A stretch of 64,000 nt of DNA. It comes from Chondrosia reniformis. Lineage: Eukaryota > Porifera > Demospongiae > Chondrillida > Chondrillidae. Made by a program: the position numbers and the translations under genes. The stretch covers positions 5,816,501-5,880,500 of the forward strand of contig OX359201.1 in NCBI GenBank assembly GCA_947172415.1, in the 5' to 3' direction. Within the stretch, counting starts at the first letter, position 1; each line of letters starts with the position of its first letter. Shown here one piece after another: positions 29,901 through 57,873 of this stretch. The notes beneath the pieces are model-generated. The model saw only the letters and a list, made by a program, of their open reading frames with translations. It ran no database searches and was not told where the DNA came from.

Positions 29901-31608
29901 TCTTTTTGGTTTAGCCAATCAGATAGTGCTTACTAATATCCCTATCCATAAGTTATAAATCTAGGTAGATATTGTTTAGATTATTCATGGCTAAGCTATT
30001 ACAGGAAGAGTTAAAAGTGTAGTAAATAAATGTTTCCTTTACATTGGGGTATTCATGACACTGTTTCCTGCATCAGTCCAATCTAAGGTTTGATGATCTT
30101 TCTGCAGAGAGTGACTTATTGAATTGCTATTCCTCTGGCAGTCATTATGTGATGTAATAGGATGTCTAGTATTGTTTACATATTAAGTATGCATGGCACT
30201 TTCCTTTTAGGATAGTAGTCATGGCAACTCAATTTTATCATTGAGCTGTATATAGTTCTTATTATTGATCTTATTGAAGTTGGCCATGTGGTGCATAGTT
30301 ACGAATGTGCTATAGTAAATGACGCGTAAGATATTGTCTAAATTTTTCAGAGGTACATGTGTATATTTGTTATTTTAGCATGTCAATGGGATTCCTGGTG
30401 GAGGAGAAAGCAGCCATTGTCTGGAGGGGGTTAATGGTGAGTATGCACACTATTCATCTGCTACCTGCCTACAGAATTAGTTCACATCCTTCCAATCACT
30501 GAACTTCATTATCTTATTGCTCACACTCTTTTGGTTCTTCTGTTGCTAGGTGATGTCAGCCATTCAAAAGCTGTTGAGAGGTGTTGACTGGGGAATACTG
30601 GATGTTTTAGTGGTTGATATGCCTCCAGGAACTGGAGACACCCAACTAACCATTTCCCAGCAAGTACCTGTTAGTGGTAAGTTCACTGATATGCTATTCA
30701 CCCCTGCAGTGAAACTTACACTTAATCATAAAGTCATGCATCAGCACCTGGCCCAGTGGAGAAGAAGAAAGAAAAGAAAAGTCTCCATGACCTGTATCTT
30801 CACCCAAAGCTCTCTCCAGGCTTAGTTCCCTATAGTTTTTTTTAAAGAGTAGGCATAGCATGTAGGAAAATGGTGTATTAGATTTTTCACCTGTATCTAA
30901 AGACAGTGTTAATCTATAGTTGGCCATGCTATATACATAAGATCAAATCCTCTTATTTAGAGGTTGAATAAATATGCTGTATTTTATTCATGTGCAGGTG
31001 TTGTTATGGTAACAACTCCCCAGGATATAGCACTACAAGATGTGAGGAGAGGAGCTGTCATGTTTAAACAGGTTGGAATTGAGGTAACACTGAAAACTGG
31101 CTGAAACAATATATACAACACTACAATACCAAAAAAGGATATGGTCATCCTATAAAGCTACATATACATAATATTTACAATATTTCAATGGTCTGAAACA
31201 GACTTAAATATAATAGAAAACTAGGGTTGTTCTCTTTTAGCTTTGAAGTGTTTAATTTCTTATTATAACAGGTCTTTGGAATGATACAAAATATGAGTGT
31301 ATTCATATGCTCCAACTGCGGACATCAATCCCATATATTTGGAGAGAATGGTGCGGCTCAAATTACTGATGAATTGGGTATACCACTAATTGGTATGTTG
31401 ACTGTATGGGAAGCCATCTTTAACGAGTTTAAGCTTGTGGTATCATCCTCAGTTTTCTCTGCTTTTAGGAGATGTACCGCTTGAGGCTTCCATACGTGAA
31501 GGAAGTGACATTGGGAAGCCTGTAGCGCGGCAAACTGGCGGACCCTGCGCCACAGTGTACCAGGACATTGCTATGAAAATTTGGTCTAAATTAAAAAGTG
31601 TTAATTGA
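26914..31608 (+). CDS. NUBPL: NUBPL (Ind1), mitochondrial Fe-S P-loop protein for complex I
   Basis: Eight exons: 26914-27112, 29054-29179, 29704-29743, 30379-30436, 30550-30676, 30998-31083, 31272-31392 and 31469-31608, giving 298 residues. A basic presequence (VARRISRKG) precedes the deviant Walker A motif [10 protein letters not shown] at about residues 55-64. Then come [47 protein letters not shown] and the cluster-binding CxxC in [12 protein letters not shown]. The family (Mrp/NBP35 type) delivers 4Fe-4S clusters to respiratory complex I in the mitochondrial matrix. Intron 1 is the longest (1.9 kb) and contains a minisatellite; intron 5 carries a MITE-A copy. Its stop lies 19 bp before the ACBD6 start on the same strand, unusually tight. 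Confidence 0.96.
27640..28040. repeat. 25-bp and 21-bp minisatellite in NUBPL intron 1
   Basis: About eleven units near 25 bp with core CCCTGTATTAGGAGCAAGCA, followed by four units near 21 bp with core ACACATCCCTATATTAGTTG. The second family looks derived from the first. Confidence 0.92.
29829..29912. repeat. Two tandem ~39-bp units with an internal palindrome
   Basis: GGTTCAAATGAATGATTGAG continues into CAATCATTTGTGTC and repeats at once, in NUBPL intron 3. Each unit contains the inverted repeat AATGATTG-AG-CAATCATT. Confidence 0.85.
30744..30892. mobile_element. MITE-A copy in NUBPL intron 5
   Basis: Contains GGCCCAGTGGAGAAGAAGAA, CTTAGTTCCCTATAG and GGAAAATGGTGTATTAGATT, in the same orientation as the 24.9 kb copy. 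Confidence 0.75.
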
Positions 31609-34336: not shown

Positions 34337-34660
34337 ACATTGGCAATGCCTTCTTTTAGAACAACAATTAATTTTAATTTTGCAATAATTGATTTGTCTA
34401 TTTATGAAATGTTAATTCAAAGGTGTATATATAAGGAAATAAATTTGAACTCAGTATATATATATATGTACAATTGCTTTGTACATATATAATGAGTATA
34501 TACGTGCATGATTGTGTCATTTTGAATCACGATGCTGCTGTGGCTTGCTCAAGTTGAGTTTGAGAGGTGGTAACTTGTTCCCAGGTAGGGCTGATGAGCT
34601 GTTGTATGTAAATATGAGAAGGGAAACACTTAACACATCATTGAAATGTATGTACCAATC
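34337..34660. other. Convergent 3' flanks of ACBD6 and EVC2-like
   Basis: AT-rich interval with no ORF of note. It contains ACBD6 3' UTR (an AATAAA at about 34438) on the plus strand and the 3' UTR of the EVC2-like gene on the minus strand, plus a short TATATATA run near 34460. Confidence 0.6.
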
Positions 34661-37600
34661 TCACTTGAGTATCCATGGAGCAGAAGCCCTTGAGGCTCCT
34701 TGGCCCGGATCCAGTTTTATATTCTCCTCTTTAAGTGGAGGAAGTGCAGACTGCCTTCTTCTGTAATTAGTATTATGTAACAAGGAATAGAGATTACTTT
34801 TCTGATGCATATATATACGTATATACCCTCCTGGGGTCCATATAAATTATTTACATTATATTTTATTATACGTACGTATTTAACAAACTAATAAATGTAT
34901 ATACATATGCAATAAATGTATATGCACTAGTTATGACTCATATATACGTATAGTATATATACTCACATTGTGGTAATTCTTTTTTCATTAACATCCAGTC
35001 TAACTTGAGCCAATGGAACGGAGCCTGCTTCAGCAAACAGTTCTGTTAATTTGGAGTCCTACATGTGTACAAACAATTGTTTTATTATTATGGAAAACAT
35101 TGAGGATATTAATTATATAAGAAGTGAGAAGGAAGTATATTGTTTTGAAAGGAAAAGGCCTAAATAATCATATACGTATAACTGACCAGTTGGGTAATGG
35201 CTTCAAGGCCTTTTAGTTCATACTTCCTGCTAATGCTTTCTGACATTTCCTTAAACCTCTCCTCATAATCTCTCCTGTGAGTATTAATGAATACCAAATT
35301 TACACTTGTCCAATTTATTAATTAATTTGTTTTTTTATTGTGGTAATTTTAATTATATCACTCATGGATCATATATACGTACATACGTACTCTGACCTTA
35401 TGGATTCTAGTTTAATCTCTAGTCTGTATTTTAAGACTAGCATCTTGAATTTTGGCATATCTTGGAAGGTCTCAGATTCCAGACCATTCACTAATGATCT
35501 GTTTTCCTCTGCCATATTTTCCCTTTTAAGCTTTCTTTCCTCAATCTTGTCTCTTATTTGATCTAACTGGGCTTGTTTCTCATTTTCCAGTTTAGTTGTT
35601 ATTGCTTGAAGATCCTATATATACGTATATACATACATAGACCATTAATTAGATCTCAAAGGAAGAAAGGTTAAAACAGATAATACATTTAGTTGTTTTT
35701 GTTCATGCTCTCCAATGCCTTCTTCAATATACTACATGCATGTCTGACTACTTATCATACGTACGTATACGTACATAAGCATATGTAGCATGAAAACTTA
35801 AGTTTTCTATATACCTTTATATGTGACATTATGCATACATATATATTCAACCAAATTGGGTATATGTACAGCATTGTACAAATTATATACGTATAACTAT
35901 ACCAACCGTTGTGTACTGCTCCATTATAACTCTCATTTCCTCTTGATGTGGCTTTTTCTGTTCCACAGCTTCAATCAACAGCATATTCTAAATCAGTAAA
36001 GTTACAAATTTTCGGATCAAAATCTTTAATCTTTTTCCTACAAGACATTTCCTCTTGTTAGAGGATGTATCAGATTGTCCCTCTAACATAACACAGTGTG
36101 CATAGATGTTTCAATACAAAAATATTCACTAAGATTCAAAAACTGATTACAAGTTTCTGGATCTCTTAGTGAATAGATTGTGCACATCAGATTTAAGAAG
36201 TGCTCTGGAATTTGGAATACACATTTTGCAGGGAATTTATAAAACTCTTTATGATGCATGCATGCTTACTTGGGCTTGTTCATGAGAAGATAGCTCTTGC
36301 TTCATTTCTACAGCCTGAATTATGTGACAAATACGTGTAAATATGAGTACAAAATAGGAGATATGGATCAATGTGTACACTGTACCTGTCTAGTCTTCTC
36401 GACTTCAAGTTTTGTTTTGTTACCACTCCTCTTGCACTTTGCTAAAACCAATTGTTGCCTTGCCTGCTCACTACTTTTCTTTGTGAGAGATTGCCTTCTT
36501 GAATCTAGCAGCTCTGACATGGTTCTCTCTTCCTTAGCCTGTTTTTGTTCAAATTTTGATTTGATTTTATCTGGTCTTCTCTCTTCTTTTAGGACCGAGT
36601 CTACCATTCCACTATAACAAGTCAAATTTTCTTTCAACAATCTCAATCTCTCTTTCCAAGTTTCCTCCAATTCCTCCAAAAGTGATGTATTTAATACACT
36701 AAGGTGGATGTACGTATATAATCAATATAAATATATACAGTATAATAAGCCACCTTATATATATAAAATTAATGACGCATATTATATACAAATGTGTACG
36801 CACAAATGTACGTACGTACATACATACATAAATGAAGAGGGAGGTTCCCAGATAGAATGGTCTGGCCAGCCCAGTGGAAAAGGAAGAAAAGGTGATTATA
36901 TGCAGCTGCATGTAATATGTACATACATTAATCACCTGATTTTAAATATATTCTCATATTCCCTCCCAAACTCATCTGATTGGCTACTTCTGACACTGCA
37001 TGAGGTACTTGGCCTGTATATACATACATAAAATACATATTTATATGCATTCCCATGTGAGTATATGCGCATTAAGTGTCTGCTATATACTTTTATTCTA
37101 ACCTATTAATTCCAAAACATTCCTTCTTGAAATATTTCAGGGTTTCACTCCCAATGTTGGCATCAGTTAGGGCCATATTGACAATGTGCTTCAATTTTGA
37201 TATTGTCTCAAGCTCAATTTTCCCCTTCCACTCTCTCAGTTCTCTGTCATTTTCTTCCAAAAGGTTTGTGAACATATCTTCCAACTTTCTAGTTTGTTTC
37301 AAGTGGACACCTCTCAGCATCAGTTTGGTACTAAATTCATTCTTCTTATCAGCAATTGATTGGTTGATTTCATTGTGCCTTTTAACCAATAATTGCTTCA
37401 ACTCATCCAAATCCTACGTGCATGCATAAGTATGTACATGTACGTATATGTACATTCATGTACATACATAAATCAGTTTCTATATATAACATAAAATATG
37501 TTCCATTGTGTTCCTACATTGCGTATATATACATATGTAGTTTCAATAGAAATTATCGATATACGTACATGTCTATACCTACCTGATAGCAACAAGTATT

Positions 37601-40600
37601 GGCAGAGAATATATTTGGAAATTCAACTGTCTAGACAAATTGATCTCCAATTATATTACCTTTTCATTGTTTGCATTTTCTTGTTTTCTTAGTTTTCTCC
37701 ATTTTTCCAGTAAATACTCTTTAATCCCAACATCTGAATTACGTAAGTAATACTTTTCAAATATATATATCTCCATGTCATATACGTACATGCATATGTA
37801 CATATAATATATGTTCATATGTACATATTATTACCATTAAACTAACTAAATGTGTGTGCTAACTAACATAACAATCAGAGTATTGGAAGAATTAATGTTT
37901 ATTCTTCCTTCACTAAGCCAAAGAACACTCAATTTGATGAATATATATAATCTTACTCTCATAAGATTTAAGTTTCCAGTCTTCTTTGATAATTCTTAAA
38001 GCTGTTTTGTTTTCTTCCTTTTTGGCAGATGGGGCTGGTTGCCGGGGCAACTGACCGAGGCTTGCATAATCAAGTAAGGTGTTCTCCAACTGTTCCGCAT
38101 CTTCATGTGCAATAACATCATTTCTGTAGAATGGCATGATAGAATAAATCAACCAGCTGAATACATCTTTGAGATGGTTCATCTTTAGTCTTTCTAGCAT
38201 CTAAGAGACACATCTTTGAGATGATTCATCTTTAGTCTTTCTAGCATCTAAGAGACACAGTTTGGCTTTTGATAAGTGACTTCTCAAAGAAAACAGACTG
38301 TACCTTTAGATGCTCAAAGGACTACAGATGAACCATCTCAAAGATAAGTTTGGAGTAATTAAAAGAAATATCATATGCATCTTACAGCTATTAGAGTGTA
38401 TGTGCACTGCTATTATTTGATATACATATGTGTGCATATGCATATACGTATGCAGCGTACTTCTCTAGAGTTTTAGTTGATTTTTGGATGTGTCTCCTGA
38501 GTAGGTTTAATTTCTTATCATCGGCCACTTGTAAATATTCCTGTTGTGCATAATATAATATGTACATGATATATACACATGTACGCAAACCAACAGAAAA
38601 AGTAGAAAAGCTAGAAAAGACTATAAGATTATAAGATTATACCATGTACAGTAATACTTAAAGATATTTAAGTCAATAGATTAATATTTTCCCTATATAT
38701 ATAAATAAAATATTTTAATCAATACCATTTCACAACTCATTTTCATCATTTGTGCAAGTGTCTCAAAGGCTGCTTGTCTTAACAGTTGCTTTTCTTCATT
38801 CAAGGTTTCCATAGCAGCTAATAAACTGATTGTTAGTTGTTTCAATAGCTCAGACCTTTGAGCAGTGTTTAATAAAATTGATTCTTTGTCCTTTTCATTG
38901 AAGCACGCCTGTACTGCCTGGAAAGCCTCCAAAAATGAATCCTAAAGTATTAGGCTTATATACACATACGTACGTGTATATATATGAAGCTAATAATATT
39001 ACATATAATAATGACAGTAATCTCCCAGTAAGTACGTATATAGGGATGACATAATGATTAACCTTAACATGTTTAGTTTTGCTCTTCAGTTCTCTTATTA
39101 TTTGCAGTTCTTTCATTGCATTGAATATCCATTTTTCACCTTTTAACATCGTCTTTTTGAAGAAATCTTTAAGCTCTGCCCAAACACTTCCAGCCATGTT
39201 GAGATTGTTCTCTAATTTTTCACTTTGCTTTTCAATCTCTTCTTTTACTTTCTTAAACTCTTCCCATACTTGGTTGACAGGCAAGGAATATGTAATTCCA
39301 CCTTCTCCTTCTTTTGGAACTACTGGCAGAGTGGTTTGCAATATTTTGCTGCAGATATCCTGCAAGTTATCTATTATCTACAAAGAGAAGAGAAGGTGTG
39401 ATGTATGTACGTACGTAAATGAACTAGATTCAGTTCACAAATAACAAAGCCTCGTATAAAGTACATATATGGTCCAGTGTAGAAAGGAATTATGAAAAAT
39501 CAGTATGAGAACTGTATTCTCATCCAAAGCTTAATAGACTTTCCTTAAAATAAATCCAGGAAATAAAGATAGGGTATTTTAGTCTATAGAATAGTGCCTT
39601 AGACTAGCTAATGTGTCTCACTGTTCTTTTTGCTTTCTCTGACAGATCACTAAAACTTTGAATACACTTTAATCCAGAAATCATCAGAGCATGAAGAAGA
39701 AAGGTGTAATACTCTGCTTCTATATCTTGGAGTTCTTTGCTAAACACCCTCAACATTTTATCATGTTTAGAGCTCAAATGAAGATTGGGTAGAAATAGGA
39801 TATTCATGTAAGATAATTCAAGAATATCTTCAGAATAATTGTTCATCTCTTGAATGTTTGGATATAAATGTCCAGCTGCTGAGCTCCTTGAAGCTGCCCT
39901 CATTTCACCGTCTGGATCCTATTGGAGGCAATTAAAGAATGGATGTTATATACGTACTTACAGTACGTATGTATAATATACGTGGCTTATATACTAACTT
40001 CTCTTTGTAATTTGGTATTAAGTGGTTGGGCAATAATGACTTGCATTCCAACTGCCTCATCATCGTTCTCAGTGAATTCAAAGGGCTCTATTTTACTAAA
40101 CTGTCCAAAACACCAGTATCGCTTCTTCTTTAAGTAGAACAAACAGCAGCCAATGAAACAACACAGGCCAAGCACTCCAGCAAATACAGTCACAAGTACA
40201 ATTGCCAGTATATTGATTATCGGGTTTGGAATTGCCACTACATTAATACACTGCTGCTGTGAAACAGCTGGAAGGTGAATGTAAGATTTGGAGCCCATTT
40301 CTCCAAGTTCATGATCAGGCATCTATATATAATGAAAGGTACATGTAAGTACATTGATTATACTGCCTTGAAATACATGTACCTATAGGTCTGCATGGAG
40401 TCATCATTTATATATATACATATGTATGTATACTGTATATTTGCTAATATATTATATACACATATATATCATGTCTGTATACATATTCATCACATGTATA
40501 AAACAAAATTTTCCTAAAGATAAGGTTGAGAGGCTAAAGAAGAATATATTATATTATACTATTTGCCTAAGTACCTCATTCCATGGTGGTGTATCATGAA

Positions 40601-43533
40601 TGATGTTTGTATAACTAGTTGTGGTTGGTAGATTCTGATTTTGACCTGATCTACCAATCAGGCTTTCTGAGTCCAATCTGGTGTAGTACCATATATCCAC
40701 AGAATCCCCCAACACCAAGGTAACATTAAGCTTGAAAATAACAAATCCTGAAGTAAAACCAATCTATACACAAAGAAGATTAATTAAATTTTAGATTAAA
40801 CTTTATAAGTACATTCACCATGTGATTACCTAGATCTATATAAGTAAGTAAGTATGTACATGTAATTATATAGATGAACTATATGTAGGGGAGTTAATTG
40901 CACTGAGCCGTGCATAGGCTATAGATATGATGATAAGCAAAATAATCACTGAAATGTATTACGCTAAACCAGCCAAGTGACTGCTGACTAATCTTGCCTG
41001 GGGGAATGACCTATTAGCAACCAGTGATCGCCTCCCATTCGACTTAGGACTTTGGTTTGGCATAATACATTCCAGTGATTATTTGCTTATTATGTACGTA
41101 ATAGGGGAGCTAAGGATCTATGTTGGGATTCAAAGAAGAACTTCCATCAAAACTTCCAGGGTCACCGATGAATGGTTACCAGAAACAGCTGTCTGGCCCA
41201 GTGGAGCAGAAGAATAAGGAGAAGACTCTTGTATCCATATCCCTCTCACTAGGTTTAGTTCCCTATAGGCCTTCTATGTTGTCTTAATGGGTATTTCTTG
41301 AAGAATAGGGTAATTTAATGAATTTAGCCCAGTACGTATATACAACATTGCTCATCCTCACTATGATCATTTGCCTCGCTGAGCTGTTCCAGCCATCAAA
41401 CTTGATCCCTGGGAGAAGTGTGTCTCTCACTACTATATCAACAGCTGCACTCTCACTGCCTGCTCCATGCTGTACTTTAAGATGGACCGTTAAAATGGGT
41501 GGCTGATGGATGCTCTCTTGAGATAGCTACATACATATATACAGTATGTGGGGATGCAAACATTAGACCATTTGAATTTGAATGTTTGTCAATTCTAGAA
41601 TTTTCTATATTCTACGTACGTATATACGTATGTACGTACTCATAGAAATTTTCAGCAACACTTCAAATTCTTCAAACAAAGGATTAAGACATTGACCCTT
41701 TCGTCTTTATCAGTTATAGAATGATGAAGGTCAATGGATTGAAGCCTCTTAATCATTGTCTGAAGAAGTGTATGTTGTTAATTGCTCCAAAATCATTAAG
41801 ATGGCAACAAGTACCTCTTTCTCCTTTCACATATACACACACATGTTCCTATCTTCTTATTACATTGAGATGTACATACGTACATACGTATATGAATGAT
41901 AATCTAAATTGTGGCTCACCATTAAAGACTTGGATGTCAGAAGCTCTGGTTCAATGATACTTATGAGGAGATCCCTGCCAATTGGTATTGTGCAGCTGGT
42001 GTGTGTGAGGTTGTCCCTAAGTGACATTGTGACAGCTGCCAGTTCTCCATTGCTAGCATTACTATGCACTTGAAATTGCAGGTCAATCCAAGCTGGAGGG
42101 CTTCCTATGCTAGTACTTTCAGGTATAACAAACTGCTGAAATTCCCAACAGAAGCAACTTTGTGGAACAAATGTATTAAATAAACAGTTTTGAAATGGTG
42201 GATTAACAGTTTTGTTCAAAATGCTAATTTCAACTTCCTCCCCATGGACAACCAATGTAAAATTGACCAATCCAATTGGTCTATTCTGTCCAAGAGGGTA
42301 TTTCACACATAGTATGCTGTCCACGGCTACTGGTTGATCTAGTGGTACTAAAACAGGTGATCTGACCTTAAAATACTCATACAGAGTTAGCTTGTCATCT
42401 AAGGTAAAGCTGAAGGATGATGCAATTCCTCCTTCCCATCTTGGATAGGATCTGATATGGAAGAGTGATTGGTTAGATTCTGTATACAAATTCCAAAGTT
42501 CATCTTGATACGACAGGCTCATTTTAATGTTATGATAACTTCCTGGTATCAGCACTGGAATTCTACTTCTTAATGGAATGGTTGTGTTGAAATCCAATTC
42601 AAGCAAAGTTGGTGTAATCAAGGAGCGTGTATTAAAGTTGCCTCCTCTCCAGATATTTAGAGAATAAGCATCTCTTCTTGAAATTGAGCTATGTTGGATG
42701 AAGGCATTGGAAAACACTCTATCACCGGGACACCCAGGTGGAAATTCTTGTACAACAAATGTCAAGTGCGGTTGGACCACGAAGAGTGTTACAATTATGT
42801 CTGTTTCTAGTTCAGATTGGTTAGAATTCTCATATGTGAGGGCACTGAAGTAGACCTCACTCTGCTGCCATGGATCCAGCCTTACCATAAGTGGCACATA
42901 AAACTGAATCAATAGGGTCCCATTTTGATCAATAGTGTTATTTCCATCAATAGTGCTGTTTCCATCAATAGTGCTGTTTCCATCAATAGTACTGTTTCCA
43001 TCAATAGTGCTGTTTCCATCAATAATACTGTTTCCATCAATAGTGCTGTTTCCATCAATAGTGCTGTTTGAAAGAATTGCCTCTATGTCGATCAGAAATG
43101 TGCATGCAGAATGAGTAGTATCATTGGAACATGTGAAAATTGTAGTCTGTTCTGTCTCATTCACTGACATGTTGCCGAGTACATCTGTTCCATTCAAAGT
43201 GATGTTTACACTCTCAGCAGAGAAAAACAAGAAATTATCTTCATCTTCTAGTTCAGACCAGTTAGAAGATATAGTGAATTCCAGTATAGATGAATTATAA
43301 GGTATATTGAGATTTAGTAGAAAAAATAGTGCCTCATTTGGTAGCACTTCTCTAGTAAAGTTCAAATAAAACTGTTCCTCACTCTGATTGACAAAGGAAA
43401 TATTGCTGGTCTCTTCTGTCACAAAATCAAGTTCAACAATTGAATCAAATACTTGGCTACTTGCCTCATTCTTACTGCAGCTGAAATGTAGGGCAATGAT
43501 ATAGGCCAATCCACAGTAGAAGAACCAGGACAT
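34661..43533 (-). CDS. EVC2: EVC2 (limbin)-like single-pass coiled-coil protein
   Basis: Nineteen exons. The first, 41920-43533, is followed by 41344-41502, 40575-40763, 39999-40322, 39622-39918, 39063-39377, 38726-38941, 38461-38540, 37957-38123, 37660-37733, 37103-37413, 36936-37013, 36386-36698, 36270-36314, 35907-35987, 35397-35614, 35187-35274, 34967-35058 and 34661-34760. They sum to 4761 bp, or 1586 residues. A signal peptide (WFFYCGLAYIIALHFSCS) opens a ~680-residue ectodomain rich in N-glycosylation sites. A TM segment follows at about residues 685-712 (ILAIVLVTVFAGVLGLCC), then a long cytoplasmic coiled-coil region (EEFKKVKEEIEKQSEKLE and others). This is the architecture of limbin, the ciliary-base Hedgehog modulator that pairs with EVC. 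Similarity is structural more than literal; the main support is the head-to-head EVC-like neighbour. Confidence 0.7.
38165..38345. mobile_element. MITE-B copy in EVC2-like intron
   Basis: Inverted ends CTTTGAGATGGTTCATCTTT and GATGAACCATCTCAAAGATA. The left arm is present twice in tandem (38162 and 38210), an internal duplication not seen in the other copies. Confidence 0.8.
40933..41097. mobile_element. MITE-C, complete fold-back element
   Basis: About 165 bp with inverted ends of about 28 bp (ATAAGCAAAATAATCACTGA at the left, CCAGTGATTATTTGCTTATT at the right). It has no coding capacity and sits in an EVC2-like intron. Partial copies lie near 10.05 and 11.95 kb. Confidence 0.8.
41165..41280. 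mobile_element. MITE-A copy in EVC2-like intron
   Basis: Shows CAGCTGTCTGGCCCAGTGGA, TCTCACTAGGTTTAGTTCCC and TATAGGCCTT. It is a truncated copy. Confidence 0.7.
42931..43070 (-). repeat. 18-bp coding minisatellite in the EVC2-like ectodomain
   Basis: About eight in-frame copies of an 18-bp unit encode STIDGN. Because the unit joins as N-S-T, each junction forms an N-glycosylation sequon; one unit reads SIIDGN and loses it. Confidence 0.93.
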
Positions 43534-43851
43534 TTAGACTCTGACTTCTCTCCTAGCTTCCAAGTTTGTTACTTTTTCTCTTGCATGATCTTTTAGAAGT
43601 TTCACACTATGCAGGGAAAGGCATTAACACAATTTATGTTAATTGATACATGAGTAAACAATATAAAAACAAAGTATTGCCCTAAACATACTAGTCTGCA
43701 TACTGTGTTCTTTATCCTTTCTTAACACTCTAATTAATAAAATAACTGTCAATAGTTGTTAAAATGTGGTCATTTAGTCTTCTTGGGAGGTGTCATACTC
43801 AATCACTGAGAAGTCTCTGGAGAATTAGTTTAGTCTAAAGAGGAGCCAATC
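43534..43851. promoter_or_regulatory. Bidirectional promoter EVC2-like / EVC-like
   Basis: 318 bp between divergent start codons, the widest of the divergent intervals here. AT-rich; no motif recognised. Confidence 0.6.
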
Positions 43852-46800
43852 ATGAGCAGTTGTGAGGAGGGACAGTTTGTGTATGAACTCCTGTATGTCC
43901 ACCCTCTGTTCACTCCACTTGGAGCCTTTCTTGGTTTTATTTTTGGATTGGGAATGGGAATGGTACTTCTCTGTGTGGCCCTGCCAGTATATGATATTGT
44001 AATGGTATTAACAGGAAGAAATGAAAAGCCAAATATTGAGGTATGTTATAGATCTTATATACTGTAATATATATAGATGATTCAGCACAGTAGTGATATA
44101 TGTGATGTATAGTTGGTGGAAATAGGAAGGTATATTGTATTCTCAGGTATTATAGGCTTTCCTTAAGTAGCAAGCCTAAAAGAAAACTATTATAGTTATA
44201 GTCCTTAGCCTATATGCTGTATATATGTACTAGCTCTATAGTCATTGTAGTACTTGAATTGATCCTTAATTAAATGGTGTATGTATGTATAAGTAAGTGT
44301 TTATGCATTATAACACATACTTACAGAATTACAATAATTGTATATAGGACACCATATTAGGTAATTATATAAAGAGATTATTTGCATGGATATATATATT
44401 TATATGTATAAGCATGCATGTGTATATACATATTGTACTCACTGTATATGTATATGTTCAGTACAATGTATTACAGCAAGGTTTTGTATTATAGTGTCTT
44501 GACTTTTGTAAGTTTGGACATGACGACACTGTCTCAATCCTGTCATCCAGAGCAAGTTTGCAAGGCTATAACTTAGAAGAAACTTGGCCAAGATTCAGTA
44601 TTCCTTATCTTTGGTCAGAAGTAAGCACTAATATATAAAATTAGCCTATATTTTATATGCTTATATCTTTATGTACGAAAATGTGGTACATTATGTAATT
44701 TAGTTAGCTTTTAAAATCCAAGAAGATGAAAGTAACCAAAGCAAAGATGAGGTTGGGTTTCAAGAACACTTCAAGCACATTTCAAGCAGGTCCTTTAAGT
44801 TGTCTTCTCAATCCTTGGGACCTCATTCTTTGGAGATTTCCTCACTTGTTGAAATACTTACAATGGACAGGTAATTGGAGACTGCATGTACAGTATATGG
44901 TATCTGTATATATGTATGTATAACATTATGCTGGCACTTTACATTTTAATGAAACACTTAATAGAATAAGGATAACTGTATATTCAACTTATGTTTTGTA
45001 GATAGATAGATAAATTTTGATTTATAACAGGAAGTGCCCCTTCGGCAATGCTGGTCTACCAGGGGATCCTACATATAGGTGTAGACACACCATTACATAC
45101 ATGAAAAGTAACGATTGTTGATGAAGATAAAGTAAAAAATTATCTTTTGAGTTAGTGTCTGAAGACACAGGTTGGTAATTCTTTGTTAAAACTTTCGACC
45201 CCGAGAATCTTCTTCTGCAAATTGAACCATCCAAAAGACATGAAATGTTTTCTTATTAAAACATAATTTCATGTGCGTATCTGTACATGTGTACCCCTAA
45301 CAATGCATGTCTTATTTAAACATTTATGTAGATCTACTGCCAAACTAGCCTTACCTGTGTACCATACTCGGAAGATTCTTGAAGTAGACATCACAAAGAT
45401 TGCAATCTTACTTGAGGTGTGTCAGTAACTCTTTAATTTTGGCATACTATAATTATGTACGTATTTTAAAACTTTCTATACATTTACGTATGTATTACAT
45501 ATATGATCAAACCTTTAGGGATTTTCTTTGCTCAAAGATGCATTGTATAAACATGGATTTCAAAGTGCATTGAGTATTTCTGAGGTATCACAAGATATTG
45601 AGGAGATCATCCAAGAGTTGAAAATTCATTTAAAACAAAGAGAAATTGTGAGTATCAGAGAGTACGGTTGTTTAACCATGGTCACCCCCTGAATGAAGCC
45701 ATCGCAGTTTTGAATTCTACTTTTTTGTATATTATATATACAGTTACTAGGTTCCCTTATAACTCAAAGTGGCAATGATATTATTGAGTCCCTGCTAAAC
45801 TGGGAGAAGCAGTGGAATAACAAGAAAATGTCTGCAGTTAGTGTCCACTATTCTAATTCCATGTCTCTGTGTTTATACTAAATAGCATGCATTATTAACC
45901 CATCTAGGTGAGACTACTAAATGAAGGTGTGACTTTAATTGAGGATATATGGAACCAAAAGAAGAGTAAAGAGGCACGTTTATAGTATGAAATTATAAAA
46001 TTTCAAAATTTAATGTTTTTATGATAACTGTGCATGAAAAATCTAATACGTAAGTACACCATTTTCCTACATGCTATGCCTACTCTGTAAAAAGGCCTAT
46101 ATATAAGGTACTAAACCTGGAGAGAGCTTTGGATGAAGATACAGGAGTCTTTTCTTTTCTTTCTTCCTCTGCTCCACTGGGCCATGTTAGCTAAAGGTTT
46201 TTCTCCTACATATTAGGAGTTCCCTAAACTAAACTTTTCCTTAAATAAAATATACTCAATGTTATGGGAACTAATTAGTTAATTCTCATTAATGCTCGTA
46301 TTAGAATGGAGAGTCTGTTGATGTTAGAACCATTTGGTCGGAGTATCAGAATAGTGTTGTGCAACAACTTGAAAAGCAACTTGCACAGGTGAATATGCAT
46401 GTATATACGTACATAGCACATGCAGACATGTTAAGGGCTCACAGAGGACCAAGAATATTCACAAGTCAGTGATGAGAGATGCATGATATTATGGTCGTCT
46501 GGCTCAGCAGAGGAGAGGAAGATAGTACTAATGGCATCCTCATCCAATATACTATCTACTTATCCTACACAAACCTAGGAAATTGTGCATGTAGTTTATT
46601 TATTTATTTATTTCAATTGTCACGAATCTAAAATATATATTCCAAAAACTATGATCATCATGTCTATGAAGCTAAGGAACATAAGGAGAATATGTTTAAA
46701 AACACAATTTTCATATCCGCCAGATGTTTATGCATAGGCTTAGAAAATTCATGTTTTGATAAACGCACATATACACATTTACACATACGTACGTATGTTT

Positions 46801-49800
46801 AATCTTACATGTGTACAATGCTATTGGTTGTAAATCCCTGTTTCTCCCTGGTATCCATTAAGATGCGGTACAGAGTGCTTCCTTTGGAAGAACTTGTATT
46901 AAATGAAGTCAATGCTTATCAGAAACACTTTGAGGGTCACATTAAGCAGTTATCTGATAGGCTAATGGAAATCATAGGAAGAGAGATTATTAACAGTCAA
47001 CTAATTGACGGCGAAAAAGAAAAGTTAGTAAAAAATCAGTGACACCACTTTTTAGTTAATAAGCTTATAAATGTACATGTACTCCACCATGTACCCACAA
47101 ATACAGATATGTACATACGTACATACATGTACATTCATACAGTATATGTACGTATATACATAGTGCTTACAAATATTTTAAGTATCGATTTTTTTTTAAA
47201 ACTCATTAGAGATGCTTTATGCATGTGTGTACATATGTCTGAACAAGTGTGAGCTTCATATCAGTTCATTTGATAGAGTTGTGACCCTAAATGTACATTA
47301 AATTTTATAAAATACCCATGCCAGCTTAATGTATGGTCAGAGATATACATACCCATTTGCTTGTTTGAGTTTTGTGGAGATTTTTTTGAATGTATATAAT
47401 ATGAAGATTGTACGTATACCTGAATTTTTTATGATACAATGATATTTAGGATTCTTGGATATGCTAATGCTTTCATGGAGACGCTCAAGAAACAGATAAA
47501 TAGATCCAGTATGACCATTAATGCATCTGGTCAAAGCTTTCGTGGGTTTGACTCTATCAGAAGGCAACTGAAGGAAGTCAAAAGAAGAGTTTGTATGGAT
47601 GGAGACTACAAGAAGATGACCAGCTCATTCCTGAGTGTGGTAGAGGAACAAGAGAAAAAGCAGGAATTACAAAAATCTGAACAACTTCATGCCTCACTAA
47701 AGGAATTTCTTTCCCAAAATGAAGTACATCAATACATGTTTATTTTAGTATTCTCTATACATTCTCTATATAAATGTGTGCTTTTATTATGTATATGTAT
47801 TATACTTATGTACACATGCATTATACGTATTTAGATGTACATGAAATTTATGTACAGTATACTTATTATACAGACATATATACTTATAATATATGTAGCA
47901 ATGGCTGCTGGATCTTTTTGATGAAGTAGCTAATTGCGGCTGGATGTTTAAAGCCAAAGAGGTTAGCAGCAATGTTACATTTCAGTCAAAACTTAAGGAA
48001 GCATGTAAAGTTGTCAGTGATGATGTGAAAAGTGAGTATATGGAGGATTTTACATTATTTAAATAGAGTATGTATATATACATAAATAGAGTATATATGT
48101 GTATATGTAGTAGATATTGTACCTACTTTTTATGTACATAGCTTAGTGTATATGAATATGGGATATATGTACATATATGTATATTTGAGCATCAGCGACA
48201 CTTCAAAAATGGACGTTTAGATTGTTTCTTGAAGTGGTGCAACGTGATGATGCTCAAATATATACGATACGTACCTCTAATATTCATTATGAATGTAACA
48301 AATACTCCTAACACTAGCTTATTATATATGTACTTAAAATATACAATGTACATATAATAATGTATATGTATTAATATATAAATGTTCACATGCACATAAG
48401 TATGTCTGCATTTATGTGTATATGTATGCATGTAATGTACATATGTGTATATACATATAGGTACTTTGATAGAGACACAAGAGGAATTGAAGGATAAAAT
48501 ATTGAGACCAGTTTGTATTTATATAGAGGAAGTATGTGTATAGACATATAATATAAATGTATATTATATGTGCCTATATTTGCTATATATCTATATCAAT
48601 ATCTAGAGCAATGTGCTCATACAGTCATTTGTGATTATGATAAACATACGTACAAGTATTACTTGCTCCTAATTATCTTTTATTAGTTACAGAAGAAAAC
48701 TGATTCAATTAGAAATCCAATTGAAAGAGAAGGATTGTTAGACCAATTTTCTCATTCAGTGGCTACCTCTCATACTATCATGTCAGAAGTACTAGATAGC
48801 ATGGATCCACTTCTACAGCTGTCAGTTTAAACCTACCTATGTATATACATATTACATCATATTACATCATATTCTTGTCTGAGGGCAAATGTATATATAT
48901 GATATTTCACATGCAAAACCAATTATCCTTTGGTCCTTTGAAGTTCTATATATATCAGAGGATACGTCTAAGTAGGGATGGCAGGAAACAACATGGGTGC
49001 CCCTATTCAATGTATTACAGATTATCATCAATAACAAATACATTTTTAGTCTTTTTAGCTCCCACAAATATGGTCAGAATTCAAAGATATATTATTGGCA
49101 TATATGTATACGTACATATGCATATGCATATGTATATAGGAGGTGTAGTAGTCTGCTTGAGCAATACATGACCAAAAACAAAGTGATGGAATGCAGTCTG
49201 ACACTGTCGCTCCAAAGACTCAATACAAGGTACGTATGCTTCGTATACTGTATATGTTATGTACATATAATATGCTAAAATATTGAATATGTAATGGTTG
49301 CATGTTAATTTAAATACATTACACATATTTATGTATAACAATACAGTATTAAAGGAATTTTCAGTTTCAAGGAATCCAATCGCTGCAAGAAAAAATTTGG
49401 CAAACAAAAAGCAAAGGCCACAGAACAAACTCCCAATCCTCAGGATGAAGCAAAGGCCAAAGAACAAACTTCTAGCTATTCAGATGAAGAAGTCGCATCA
49501 GATATTATGAAACTTGCACAAAGGTTAGAAATAATAATTGTCTTCAATAAAGAGTTACAAAATATTGCATCTCACATACATGAAAAATCTAAGATACCAT
49601 TTTCCTACATGCTATACCTATTCTGTAAAAGAGCCTTTAGGGGAACTAAACCTAAAGAGAGCTTGAGAGCTTTGGATGTATATTATAAAGTAGATTACAT
49701 GTATTTCTATTCTTGTGTAGCCATCTTGAAAGTGATGCAAGGAATTTCTTGAAAAGAGAAGAAGAAGCTTTAGAGACAGCTTTTGAAACTGCCAGGGTAT

Positions 49801-51783
49801 TTACATAATTGAATGTATTGCAGCAGGTGTGGTCATTGTGATTATAATAAACTTGTACATAATATATGTAGAAAGATTTTCAGAGGGAATCTCAGCTGGA
49901 GGATAGTAAGAGACGCATCCTCAGTGGAGTCAAAGTGAGCACAATTATATATACTTTATGTACAATACATGTAGTATTAAAACACGTACATATTGTACAC
50001 ACCTAAGTTATCTCCTCCTCATAACTACTGGATGAAGACTACCTCAGGTTGTAATGTCTAAATCTGTTAAATAGTTGGTGATACTCAATAAATCATGCAC
50101 TGGCTACCATGAGTCTTATATTATCATGTTTAGAATAATTTGATAACAAAAGCGGTTTCATCCACCGGTATGACACATTTAGTAAGTGAAAAAATTCTCC
50201 AAGAACATAACACAGCTGTGAGGAAAATACAAGAAGACATAAACAAGTTAGATGAATCTCTTTGGCTTTGTAATACATCCAGTGCACGCAGGGATACACA
50301 TATATATGTATGTATACAGATGCGTACATAATATTGTGATATACCGAATGGGGCCATTATGGGGTTTATATAGTAAATATACAAGTTTTATTGATTAAAA
50401 CATGTTTGGGTATAATTCTAATAAGTCAAAAGTCCTAAAGACATCCAATCAACAAATTAATAACTGTGATTCCTTCTTGCAGAGCAAAGCAGCATCAATT
50501 GTTAATGATTCAGCAGAAAATACAAGCAAAAAGACTACTACAGCAAAGGTTTGTCTCATGTCTACTTTCTTGTTTAACCAACCCTCCTGACACACTATAA
50601 ATAATTAGTTGGCTCGTCTATTGAGCTATATAGAGAGACAGATTGCAGTGGAAAATATACTGTTTTTAAATAATGTTCAATTCTATATATTTATGTACGT
50701 ACGTATGTAGTATGTGTGCAGATGCTTAAATAGTATTGAATATTGGTATATAGGCAAATTTCTAAGGAACAAGAAGACTTGGTCTCCATCACGGCCAACA
50801 GGTATATGTGGTATTTGAAGTAAAAGATGCTTGTATACATATGTATACGTATATTCATGACATCCATTTTAAATAATATACATACACAGTGCTGTTGGAC
50901 GTGCTCTCCTACTCTTACTAATGGAAGTCAGACAGAAACGGGCAGAGAAGGTAACTTTAAGATTCTTTCCACACTTTACTGCCTTCAGTGGTGACTGCTA
51001 CTGACTTTGTATGACTGTACTGCTGTATTGTTCTTAAGGAATTAGAAAAGGAACTAAATATAGAACATGGAAGGCAGTTGAGACAACTGGAGGCAAAGCT
51101 GAGCACACAACTGAAAAAGAGGCTGAAGGTAATGTTTTTATGTATATACTATACCATTAGGTGTGCAGGTACAACTATATAACCTACAGGTATACGTAGA
51201 TGGTGTACTACATGCGTATGTATATACTGAGATTATGCAGTATATATGTACAGTGCTGTATGGTAGAAAATTCTTCAGGGGGGGGGGGGGGGGCTGAGGT
51301 TCCAAGTAACATGGGGGCAAGCACAGAAGTTAAAGGTTTCTAGGCATATGAGGCATTTCAAGAAGGGGGACAAGATGTAAACGGGGGGGGGGGGGGGCAT
51401 GTGAATGACATACTATATTATATTTTGTACAAATATATTAGACCAAAGAACTCCAGGTAATTCAAGAAATTGCAAAAGCTTGCAAGATGACAAGTGAAGA
51501 GCTGACAGCCACAGTACAGGCATCCACTCTGGGTAAGACCCATATTATTATGTATACGTATGTGTGGGTAGTGATGTACAATATACATTTATATACGTAC
51601 TCTTAAGTAGAGATGGTGAATTTATGCATGGCTTCTGTATTCAATGTACGTATATATTTTTTTTATGCAACTTAAATATTGTATTGTCCTTGATCGTATG
51701 TATATGTAGGTTCAAGGGACACCACAGACGTGGTTCTTGCAGAAGTAATGCATGGTTATGCAATCAAATCAGAAATTGGCTAA
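43852..51783 (+). CDS. EVC: EVC-like, N-terminal TM anchor plus coiled coils
   Basis: Twenty-four exons: 43852-44040, 44495-44620, 44704-44870, 45332-45416, 45519-45647, 45744-45836, 45908-45973, 46305-46388, 46863-47023, 47450-47723, 47899-48031, 48461-48531, 48687-48820, 49140-49229, 49365-49523, 49721-49796, 49872-49934, 50134-50246, 50483-50548, 50754-50801, 50890-50950, 51039-51128, 51442-51532 and 51710-51783. They sum to 2643 bp, or 880 residues. One N-terminal TM segment (about residues 21-48, LGAFLGFIFGLGMGMVLLCV) is followed by an almost entirely helical, charged cytoplasmic part (EEIIQELKIHLKQREI, QQLEKQLAQ, QLLMIQQKIQAKRLLQQR). This matches the layout of EVC, partner of EVC2 at the ciliary base. 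The seventh intron appears to use a GC donor. Distant family assignment, supported by gene order. Confidence 0.68.
45115..45245. mobile_element. MITE-B relative in EVC-like intron
   Basis: Diverged fold-back with AATTATCTTTTGAGTTAGTG and TTGAACCATCCAAAAGACAT ends. Just upstream (45030-45080) lies AGTGCCCCTTCGGCAATGCT, related to a piece at 60.18 kb. Confidence 0.5.
46028..46190. mobile_element. MITE-A copy in EVC-like intron 7
   Basis: Forward copy: GTGCATGAAAAATCTAATAC, CATTTTCCTACATGCTATGC and GAGAGCTTTGGATGAAGATA. Confidence 0.75.
49577..49685. mobile_element. MITE-A copy in EVC-like intron 15
   Basis: Truncated forward copy with ATGAAAAATCTAAGATACCA and GGGGAACTAAACCTAAAGAG. Confidence 0.7.
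51276..51397. repeat. Two poly-G tracts in an EVC-like intron
   Basis: Runs of about 16 and 14 consecutive G lie about 90 bp apart between exons 51039-51128 and 51442-51532. Such runs are prone to length error in sequencing and could form G-quadruplexes in the pre-mRNA. Confidence 0.85.

Positions 51784-53644: not shown

Positions 53645-57873
<4,229 letters not shown>

What the first reader, a model, noticed from the sequence alone, without database searches (positions are those of the whole stretch)
34661..51783. EVC2-like and EVC-like genes head-to-head in a putative sponge
Two adjacent divergent genes encode the expected partner architectures. One has a signal peptide, glycosylated ectodomain, TM and coiled coils (EVC2/limbin layout, 1586 residues). 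The other has an N-terminal TM and coiled coils (EVC layout, 880 residues). In human and other vertebrates EVC2 and EVC are also head-to-head and their products form one ciliary complex that relays Smoothened signals. If the assignment holds, both the pair and its shared promoter predate vertebrates by far, in a lineage whose Hedgehog pathway is incomplete, which would suggest an older ciliary role.
Basis: partly seen in the sequence, partly recalled or inferred. Interest (0 to 1): 0.78.

Follow-up and report, generated by a model that had tools for sequence, protein, structure and literature searches.

The report
Divergent EVC2/EVC-like gene pair in sponge
A demosponge genome carries two back-to-back genes that look like distant versions of the cilium proteins EVC2 and EVC, known for their role in animal Hedgehog signalling, which suggests that the pair may be older than that role.

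Summary
In detail: two divergent multi-exon genes start 318 bp apart, a glycosylated ectodomain-TM-coiled-coil protein (minus) and an N-terminally anchored coiled-coil protein (plus). Identity as EVC2/EVC is likely, not proven. Pfam EVC2_like (PF12297) does not match; BLASTP and phmmer find nothing against human sequences recalled from memory (recalled EVC2 scores 720 bits against PF12297). But the ectodomain-TM-juxtamembrane block fits EVC2: none of 3000 segment-wise shuffles and none of 1727 windows of other predicted sponge proteins reaches it, and it does not fit EVC. The partner's N-terminus fits EVC more weakly (10 of 2000 shuffles reach it), not EVC2. Coiled-coil similarity of the minus tail fails its reversed control. 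An EFCAB7-like gene (known EVC tether) is present; no clear Smoothened was seen, though three of five Frizzled-type genes stayed unread. That the pair and shared promoter predate vertebrates was published in 2011 (amphioxus, sea urchin, snail; not adjacent in sea anemone). New would be the sponge, a larger ectodomain, and retention without an evident Smoothened.

The parts
41920..43533 (-). EVC2-like gene, first exon: signal-peptide-like start and most of the glycosylated ectodomain
   Evidence: 557-aa open frame; gene models; sequons
42928..43069 (-). In-frame 18-bp tandem repeat (7.9 copies) coding for repeated NSTIDG, a sequon in most units
41697..41759 (-). EVC2-like, optional exon (uncertain)
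   Evidence: in the penalty-7 and -9 models, absent in penalty 11
41362..41526 (-). EVC2-like ectodomain exon
40575..40763 (-). EVC2-like membrane-proximal ectodomain exon (LVLGDSVDIWYYTRL, aligned to EVC2 LQVGDAFAVSYAATL)
   Evidence: local fit alone is weak (168 of 5000 shuffles reach it)
39999..40322 (-). EVC2-like TM and juxtamembrane exon (KKRYWCFGQFSKIEPFEFTENDD, aligned to EVC2 RHRVWQYESKLEPLPFTSAD)
   Evidence: exon alone 9 of 3000
39622..39918 (-). EVC2-like exon following the juxtamembrane exon
   Evidence: exon alone 34 of 3000
34517..39377 (-). EVC2-like coiled-coil tail exons: 39377-39063, 38926-38726, 38540-38461, 38123-37957, 37733-37660, 37413-37103, 37013-36995, 36673-36386, 36314-36270, 35987-35907, 35614-35397, 35274-35187, 35058-34967, 34760-34665, 34598-34517 with stop (3' end uncertain)
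   Evidence: periodicity
43534..43851 (.). 318-bp interval between the two start codons, putative shared promoter; one forkhead-type GTAAACA at 43654, no X-box found
43852..44040 (+). EVC-like gene, first exon: N-terminal membrane anchor (PLFTPLGAFLGFIFGLGMGMVLLC, aligned to EVC [24 protein letters not shown])
44495..51783 (+). EVC-like cytoplasmic exons: 44495-44620, 44704-44870, 45332-45416, 45519-45647, 45744-45836, 46305-46388, 46863-47023, 47450-47723, 47899-48031, 48461-48531, 48693-48820, 49140-49229, 49347-49523, 49721-49796, 49872-49934, 50134-50217, 50483-50548, 50634-50647, 50754-50801, 50890-50950, 51039-51128, 51442-51532, 51710-51783 with stop (a composite of the runs; small and 3' exons uncertain)

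Best explanation
The two genes are the sponge counterparts of EVC2 (minus) and EVC (plus), very diverged in sequence. Shown: the minus protein has an ectodomain, a TM and a long coiled-coil tail, and its TM-flanking block resembles human EVC2; the plus protein is N-terminally anchored with a coiled-coil tail and its N-terminus weakly resembles human EVC; they share a 318-bp divergent start region; an EFCAB7-like gene is in the genome. Inferred: as in mouse, where Evc2 250-671 binds Evc 463-1005 (Blair 2011), the cytoplasmic coils pair just under the membrane, the complex sits at the base of the cilium or flagellum (choanocytes, larval ciliated cells) held by EFCAB7, and the shared promoter keeps the two subunits in balance. 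As no Smoothened stands out, its work in this sponge is more likely a general ciliary-base membrane or signalling platform than relay of Smoothened.
For: Layout of both proteins and head-to-head order. E2 block (ectodomain end, TM, 110-130 cytoplasmic residues; ends differ slightly between calls), semi-global: 99 against 43.5 +/- 10.5, 0 of 3000 segment-wise shuffles reach it, human EVC as control z -0.6; 111, 0 of 3000 with the cytoplasmic part cut into 40-aa segments, reversed 41; 114.5 against at most 93.5 in 1727 windows of the other predicted proteins and at most 67 in 33 TM-centred windows. Single exons: TM exon 9 of 3000, next exon 34 of 3000. Juxtamembrane 60 aa: 2 of 5000, reversed 19 against 47. 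E1 N-terminus against EVC: 119, 10 of 2000, reversed 53.5; against EVC2 709 of 2000; highest of 1629 windows but narrowly (119 against 112). EFCAB7-like: 6 of 12 matches lie colinearly at C6:6810109-6814953 and span residues 62-577, E 4e-8 to 0.32, five of the six below 0.01.
Against: No PF12297 match for exons, pieces or the whole protein. No BLASTP or phmmer match between sponge and human; hhalign at best E 0.013 (E1-EVC, TM) and 0.027 (E2-EVC2, but at another place, 397-487 with 47-128). Human EVC against EVC2, accepted paralogues, also fail there. In whole-protein Smith-Waterman the plus protein fits EVC2 (94, 0 of 200) as well as EVC (90, 1 of 200), so specificity appears only in the N-terminal test. 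The reversed human tail beats the forward one for E2-EVC2 (155 against 114) and for E1-EVC2 (109 against 94). The rest of the ectodomain shows nothing (322 of 1000). In a six-frame scan of 7777 ORFs the juxtamembrane exon ranks 2nd (44 against 48), the longer query 3rd, the Pfam-region query has its best locus exon only 10th, and EVC queries 12th and 19th. A C-terminal motif that I saw by eye is not significant for E2 (269 of 1000). Human references are recalled; windows were chosen after looking.
Confidence: 0.7

Rival explanations
1. Two unrelated membrane-anchored coiled-coil proteins that happen to lie head-to-head; the resemblance to EVC2/EVC is general layout plus chance short matches.
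For: No profile match; coil similarity of E2 fails the reversed control; second place only in the six-frame scan; in a genome of 17,340 genes in 117 Mb close divergent neighbours are expected to be common (inference).
Against: The TM block fits EVC2 but not EVC, the partner N-terminus fits EVC but not EVC2, and the two lie side by side in the order known from other animals.
Confidence: 0.2
2. Only the minus gene is a true EVC2 relative; the plus gene is another N-anchored coiled-coil protein (kinectin/p180-like layout, recalled) next to it.
For: The E1 evidence is weaker (10 of 2000; margin 119 against 112), part of it is a low-complexity TM (41 of 5000, reversed 36 against 41), and whole-protein alignment does not prefer EVC over EVC2.
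Against: Head-to-head position expected for EVC; the E1-EVC tail fit survives its reversed control (90 against 62) and local shuffles at 0 of 200 and 31 and 21 of 2000.
Confidence: 0.1

Closest known systems
EVC2 / limbin (Pfam PF12297 EVC2_like)
   Same: N-terminal hydrophobic start, N-glycosylated ectodomain, membrane-spanning segment, about 800 aa of cytoplasmic coiled coil; GD..Y..L stretch before and W..SK(L/I)EP..FT..D stretch after the TM
   Different: No PF12297 match; ectodomain about 700 aa instead of about 300; most of the ectodomain shows no similarity
EVC
   Same: N-terminal membrane anchor with a GLGxGx core, linker, coiled-coil tail, head-to-head with EVC2
   Different: Very low sequence similarity; shorter (857 aa in my model against 993 in the recalled human protein)
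EVC-EVC2 head-to-head pair of vertebrates, amphioxus, sea urchin and snail (Blair 2011, PMC3052239: abstract, passages and sections 7 and 9 seen)
   Same: Divergent neighbours with a short shared 5' interval
   Different: 318 bp between start codons here against 2.86 kb in human and 1.75 kb in mouse; the sea anemone genes are not adjacent and Trichoplax is reported with an EVC-like gene

Membership tests
EVC2 | Match to Pfam PF12297 above its cut-off | tested here: not met
   positive control: recalled human EVC2, 720 bits. Reported therefore as a probable diverged homologue, not as a PF12297 member
EVC2 | Signal peptide, glycosylated ectodomain, one TM, long cytoplasmic coiled coil | tested here: met
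   signal peptide by eye; a weaker second hydrophobic segment at 613-631
EVC2 | Similarity of the TM-flanking region (the Evc-binding part of mouse Evc2, 250-671, starts just after its TM) | tested here: met
   0 of 3000 shuffles, top of 1727 windows; rank 2 of 7777 ORFs in a wider scan
EVC2 | Homologous C-terminal part | tested here: inconclusive
   269 of 1000 shuffles for the end motif; coil alignment fails the reversed control
EVC | N-terminal signal anchor followed by intracellular coiled coil | tested here: met
   orientation in the membrane not testable here
EVC | Sequence similarity to EVC rather than EVC2 | tested here: inconclusive
   N-terminus 10 of 2000 against EVC, 709 of 2000 against EVC2; small margin over the null set; whole-protein alignment shows no preference
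EVC-EVC2 pair | Adjacent, 5' to 5' arrangement | tested here: met
   318 bp between start codons
EVC-EVC2 complex | Physical interaction and location at the ciliary base | not testable with these tools
   needs protein work in a sponge
EVC-EVC2 complex | Tethers EFCAB7 and IQCE present | tested here: inconclusive
   EFCAB7-like colinear exons found; for IQCE one 40-aa match, E 0.0016; both queries recalled

The most novel reading that the evidence does not exclude
The EVC-EVC2-EFCAB7 ciliary module, with EVC2 and EVC already distinct and sharing one divergent promoter, existed in the last common ancestor of sponges and other animals and works in a demosponge that has no Smoothened; Smoothened signalling was later fitted onto an existing ciliary-base complex.
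Probability: 0.42. Interest if true: 0.75.

Novelty: new variant of a known kind. Interest (0 to 1): 0.52.

Why it matters
EVC and EVC2 are known as Smoothened effectors. A paired, probably co-regulated EVC2/EVC in a demosponge without an evident Smoothened would show that the complex is older than, or separable from, that job, and would make sponge choanocytes a place to ask what it does at a flagellum. It would also put the EVC/EVC2 duplication and its head-to-head order before the sponge split, so that the separated genes of the sea anemone would be a later rearrangement.

Tried and rejected
Tail-wide alignment as proof of EVC2 homology: looked good at first, but the reversed human tail scores higher; rejected. 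A C-terminal VPLA-type motif seen by eye: not significant for the minus protein. Pfam on exons, pieces and whole models: nothing over a cut-off; the best match below one was TrAA12 (E 0.00035 for the whole model) in the tandem repeat. AlphaFold of the first exon alone: mean pLDDT 32, not used for a fold search. PDB by sequence: nothing better than E 0.41 for residues 1-1056 of the minus model, nothing at E 0.1 for the first 504 residues of the recalled EVC2. Two scans of bacterial and archaeal genome contigs, hoping for sponge contamination: no relative. PF12297, recalled EVC2 and recalled EVC against the whole sponge genome: empty, which shows nothing either way. X-box in the shared interval: none. 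Silicatein as a sponge marker: pattern absent and the catalytic sites shown in the fetched Peptidase_C1 loci (20 of 43 matches) are CGSCW-type; identity came from the assembly table instead. Synteny with the human locus was not pursued: the neighbours tested are NUBPL/ParA-type and NAMPT.
Full report
What is there. The window is G000:C13:5816501-5880500 of a 117,379,552-base genome in 15 contigs. I saw the lengths of eleven contigs (C1-C10 and C13); they agree with the chromosome table of Chondrosia reniformis odChoReni1.1 to 0.01 Mb (117.37 Mb, 14 chromosomes plus mitochondrion; PMC12181767, abstract and passages seen). So the sponge guess is right and the species can be named. C. reniformis lacks siliceous spicules (same paper), and no silicatein-type site was found (motif recalled).

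Gene models. I trained a small splice-aware gene finder on 264 kb of this genome. My working joins are 1602 and 857 aa, open throughout with GT-AG introns. The minus protein starts with a signal-peptide-like stretch (by eye), has 27 sequons before a TM at 715-733, a weaker hydrophobic segment at 613-631, and a tail with heptad periodicity (z 3.7); the plus protein has a hydrophobic stretch at 13-53 and a periodic tail (z 2.3). Start codons are 318 bp apart.

Does sequence support EVC2 and EVC? Curated profiles do not: PF12297 is not matched by exons, pieces or the whole model. The recalled EVC2 is 1308 aa and matches PF12297 end to end at 720 bits, so it is a sound reference; the recalled EVC (993 aa) could not be checked that way. 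BLASTP and phmmer find nothing between sponge and human, but nor do they between human EVC and EVC2, which Blair et al. showed by PSI-BLAST to be paralogues.

Position-specific tests are positive. The block of membrane-proximal ectodomain, TM and 110-130 cytoplasmic residues scores above all 3000 shuffles that keep ectodomain, TM and cytoplasmic parts apart, again with the cytoplasmic part in 40-residue segments, and above all 1727 windows from the other predicted proteins (48 predicted in all, those holding the block left out; 114.5 against 93.5 at most). It does not fit EVC (z -0.6). The TM exon alone gives 9 of 3000 and the following exon alone 34 of 3000. The plus protein's first 300 residues fit EVC (10 of 2000) and not EVC2 (709 of 2000), with a thin margin over other sponge windows (119 against 112, n 1629).

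Results against. The coiled-coil tails give no evidence for EVC2, since the reversed human tail scores higher (155 against 114). Whole-protein alignment does not tell EVC from EVC2 for the plus protein (90 and 94). The remaining ectodomain shows no similarity (322 of 1000). In a six-frame scan of 7777 ORFs the juxtamembrane exon is second, behind an ORF in L017, and EVC queries give nothing notable. hhalign puts its best E2-EVC2 match elsewhere. Windows were chosen after inspection, so the shuffle fractions overstate significance.

Context. An EFCAB7-like gene is present as six colinear exon matches on C6 (6 of 12 matches; the other six all lie in residues 19-175, the EF-hand end, elsewhere in the genome; EFCAB7 recalled). 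[quoted passage not shown] the paper is not held). IQCE is unresolved (one match, E 0.0016). One HH_signal place and one SUFU locus with two exon matches exist. Five Frizzled-type places exist; two were read and are Frizzled by PDB comparison. A recalled SMO query gives seven matches: the same five at 66 to 84 bits, none singled out, and two at E above 0.2. So there is no clear Smoothened, with three of five unread. A paper on annelids notes that Smo has been described in Calcarea, Hexactinellida and Homoscleromorpha, not naming demosponges (PMC9695228, passages).

What is known and what is new. Blair et al. 2011 report EVC and EVC2 in amphioxus, sea urchin, snail and sea anemone, head-to-head in all but the anemone, and an EVC-like gene in Trichoplax. 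So 'long before vertebrates' is not new. I found no paper reporting the pair in a sponge in the searches, which cover the held open-access library and of which I saw listings, with passages of the two closest papers; subscription papers and supplements were not searched. New, if the assignment holds, are the sponge pair, its 318-bp spacing, its more than doubled ectodomain, and its retention without an evident Smoothened.

Mechanism. In mouse, Evc2 250-671, just inside the membrane, binds Evc 463-1005; Evc2's N-terminus is outside and both tails are inside. The cytoplasmic half of the block that resembles EVC2 here falls in the corresponding region. The likeliest working is the same: two membrane-anchored coils paired beneath the membrane at the base of the flagellum, made in balance from one divergent promoter. 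That is inference. The interval has one forkhead-type site (0.08 expected), no X-box and no CpG, so regulation by ciliary factors is not shown.

Noticed in passing
46040-46185, 49560-49664, 41120-41280, also near 2086, 16044, 22063, 25141, 30877, 32319, 55757, and in L001, L003, L006, L007, L008, L010, L011, L013: Dispersed repeat of about 70-140 bp, 72-95% identical among the copies listed, present in introns of both genes; probably a short mobile element (first 14 rows of each list seen).
   Followed up: partly
42928-43069: 18-bp tandem repeat in frame within the ectodomain, most units adding an N-glycosylation sequon; a candidate for length variation between individuals.
   Followed up: partly
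38163-38259: 47-bp tandem duplication at an exon edge of the minus gene that makes the local exon start ambiguous.
   Followed up: no
43481-43900: The shared 5' stretch has no CpG at all, against an observed/expected ratio of 0.35 in the window.
   Followed up: no
30550-31484 (+) and 53726-55078 (+): Neighbouring genes: NUBPL/ParA-type P-loop protein and nicotinamide phosphoribosyltransferase.
   Followed up: no
L053 (G000:C2:118760-119090): A Hedgehog N-terminal signalling domain exon, 43 bits to PF01085; whether it belongs to a hedgling-type protein was not tested.
   Followed up: partly
G000:C10:7396765-7494286: Four of the five Frizzled-type genes, each matching in one unbroken frame, lie within 100 kb on one chromosome.
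   Followed up: partly
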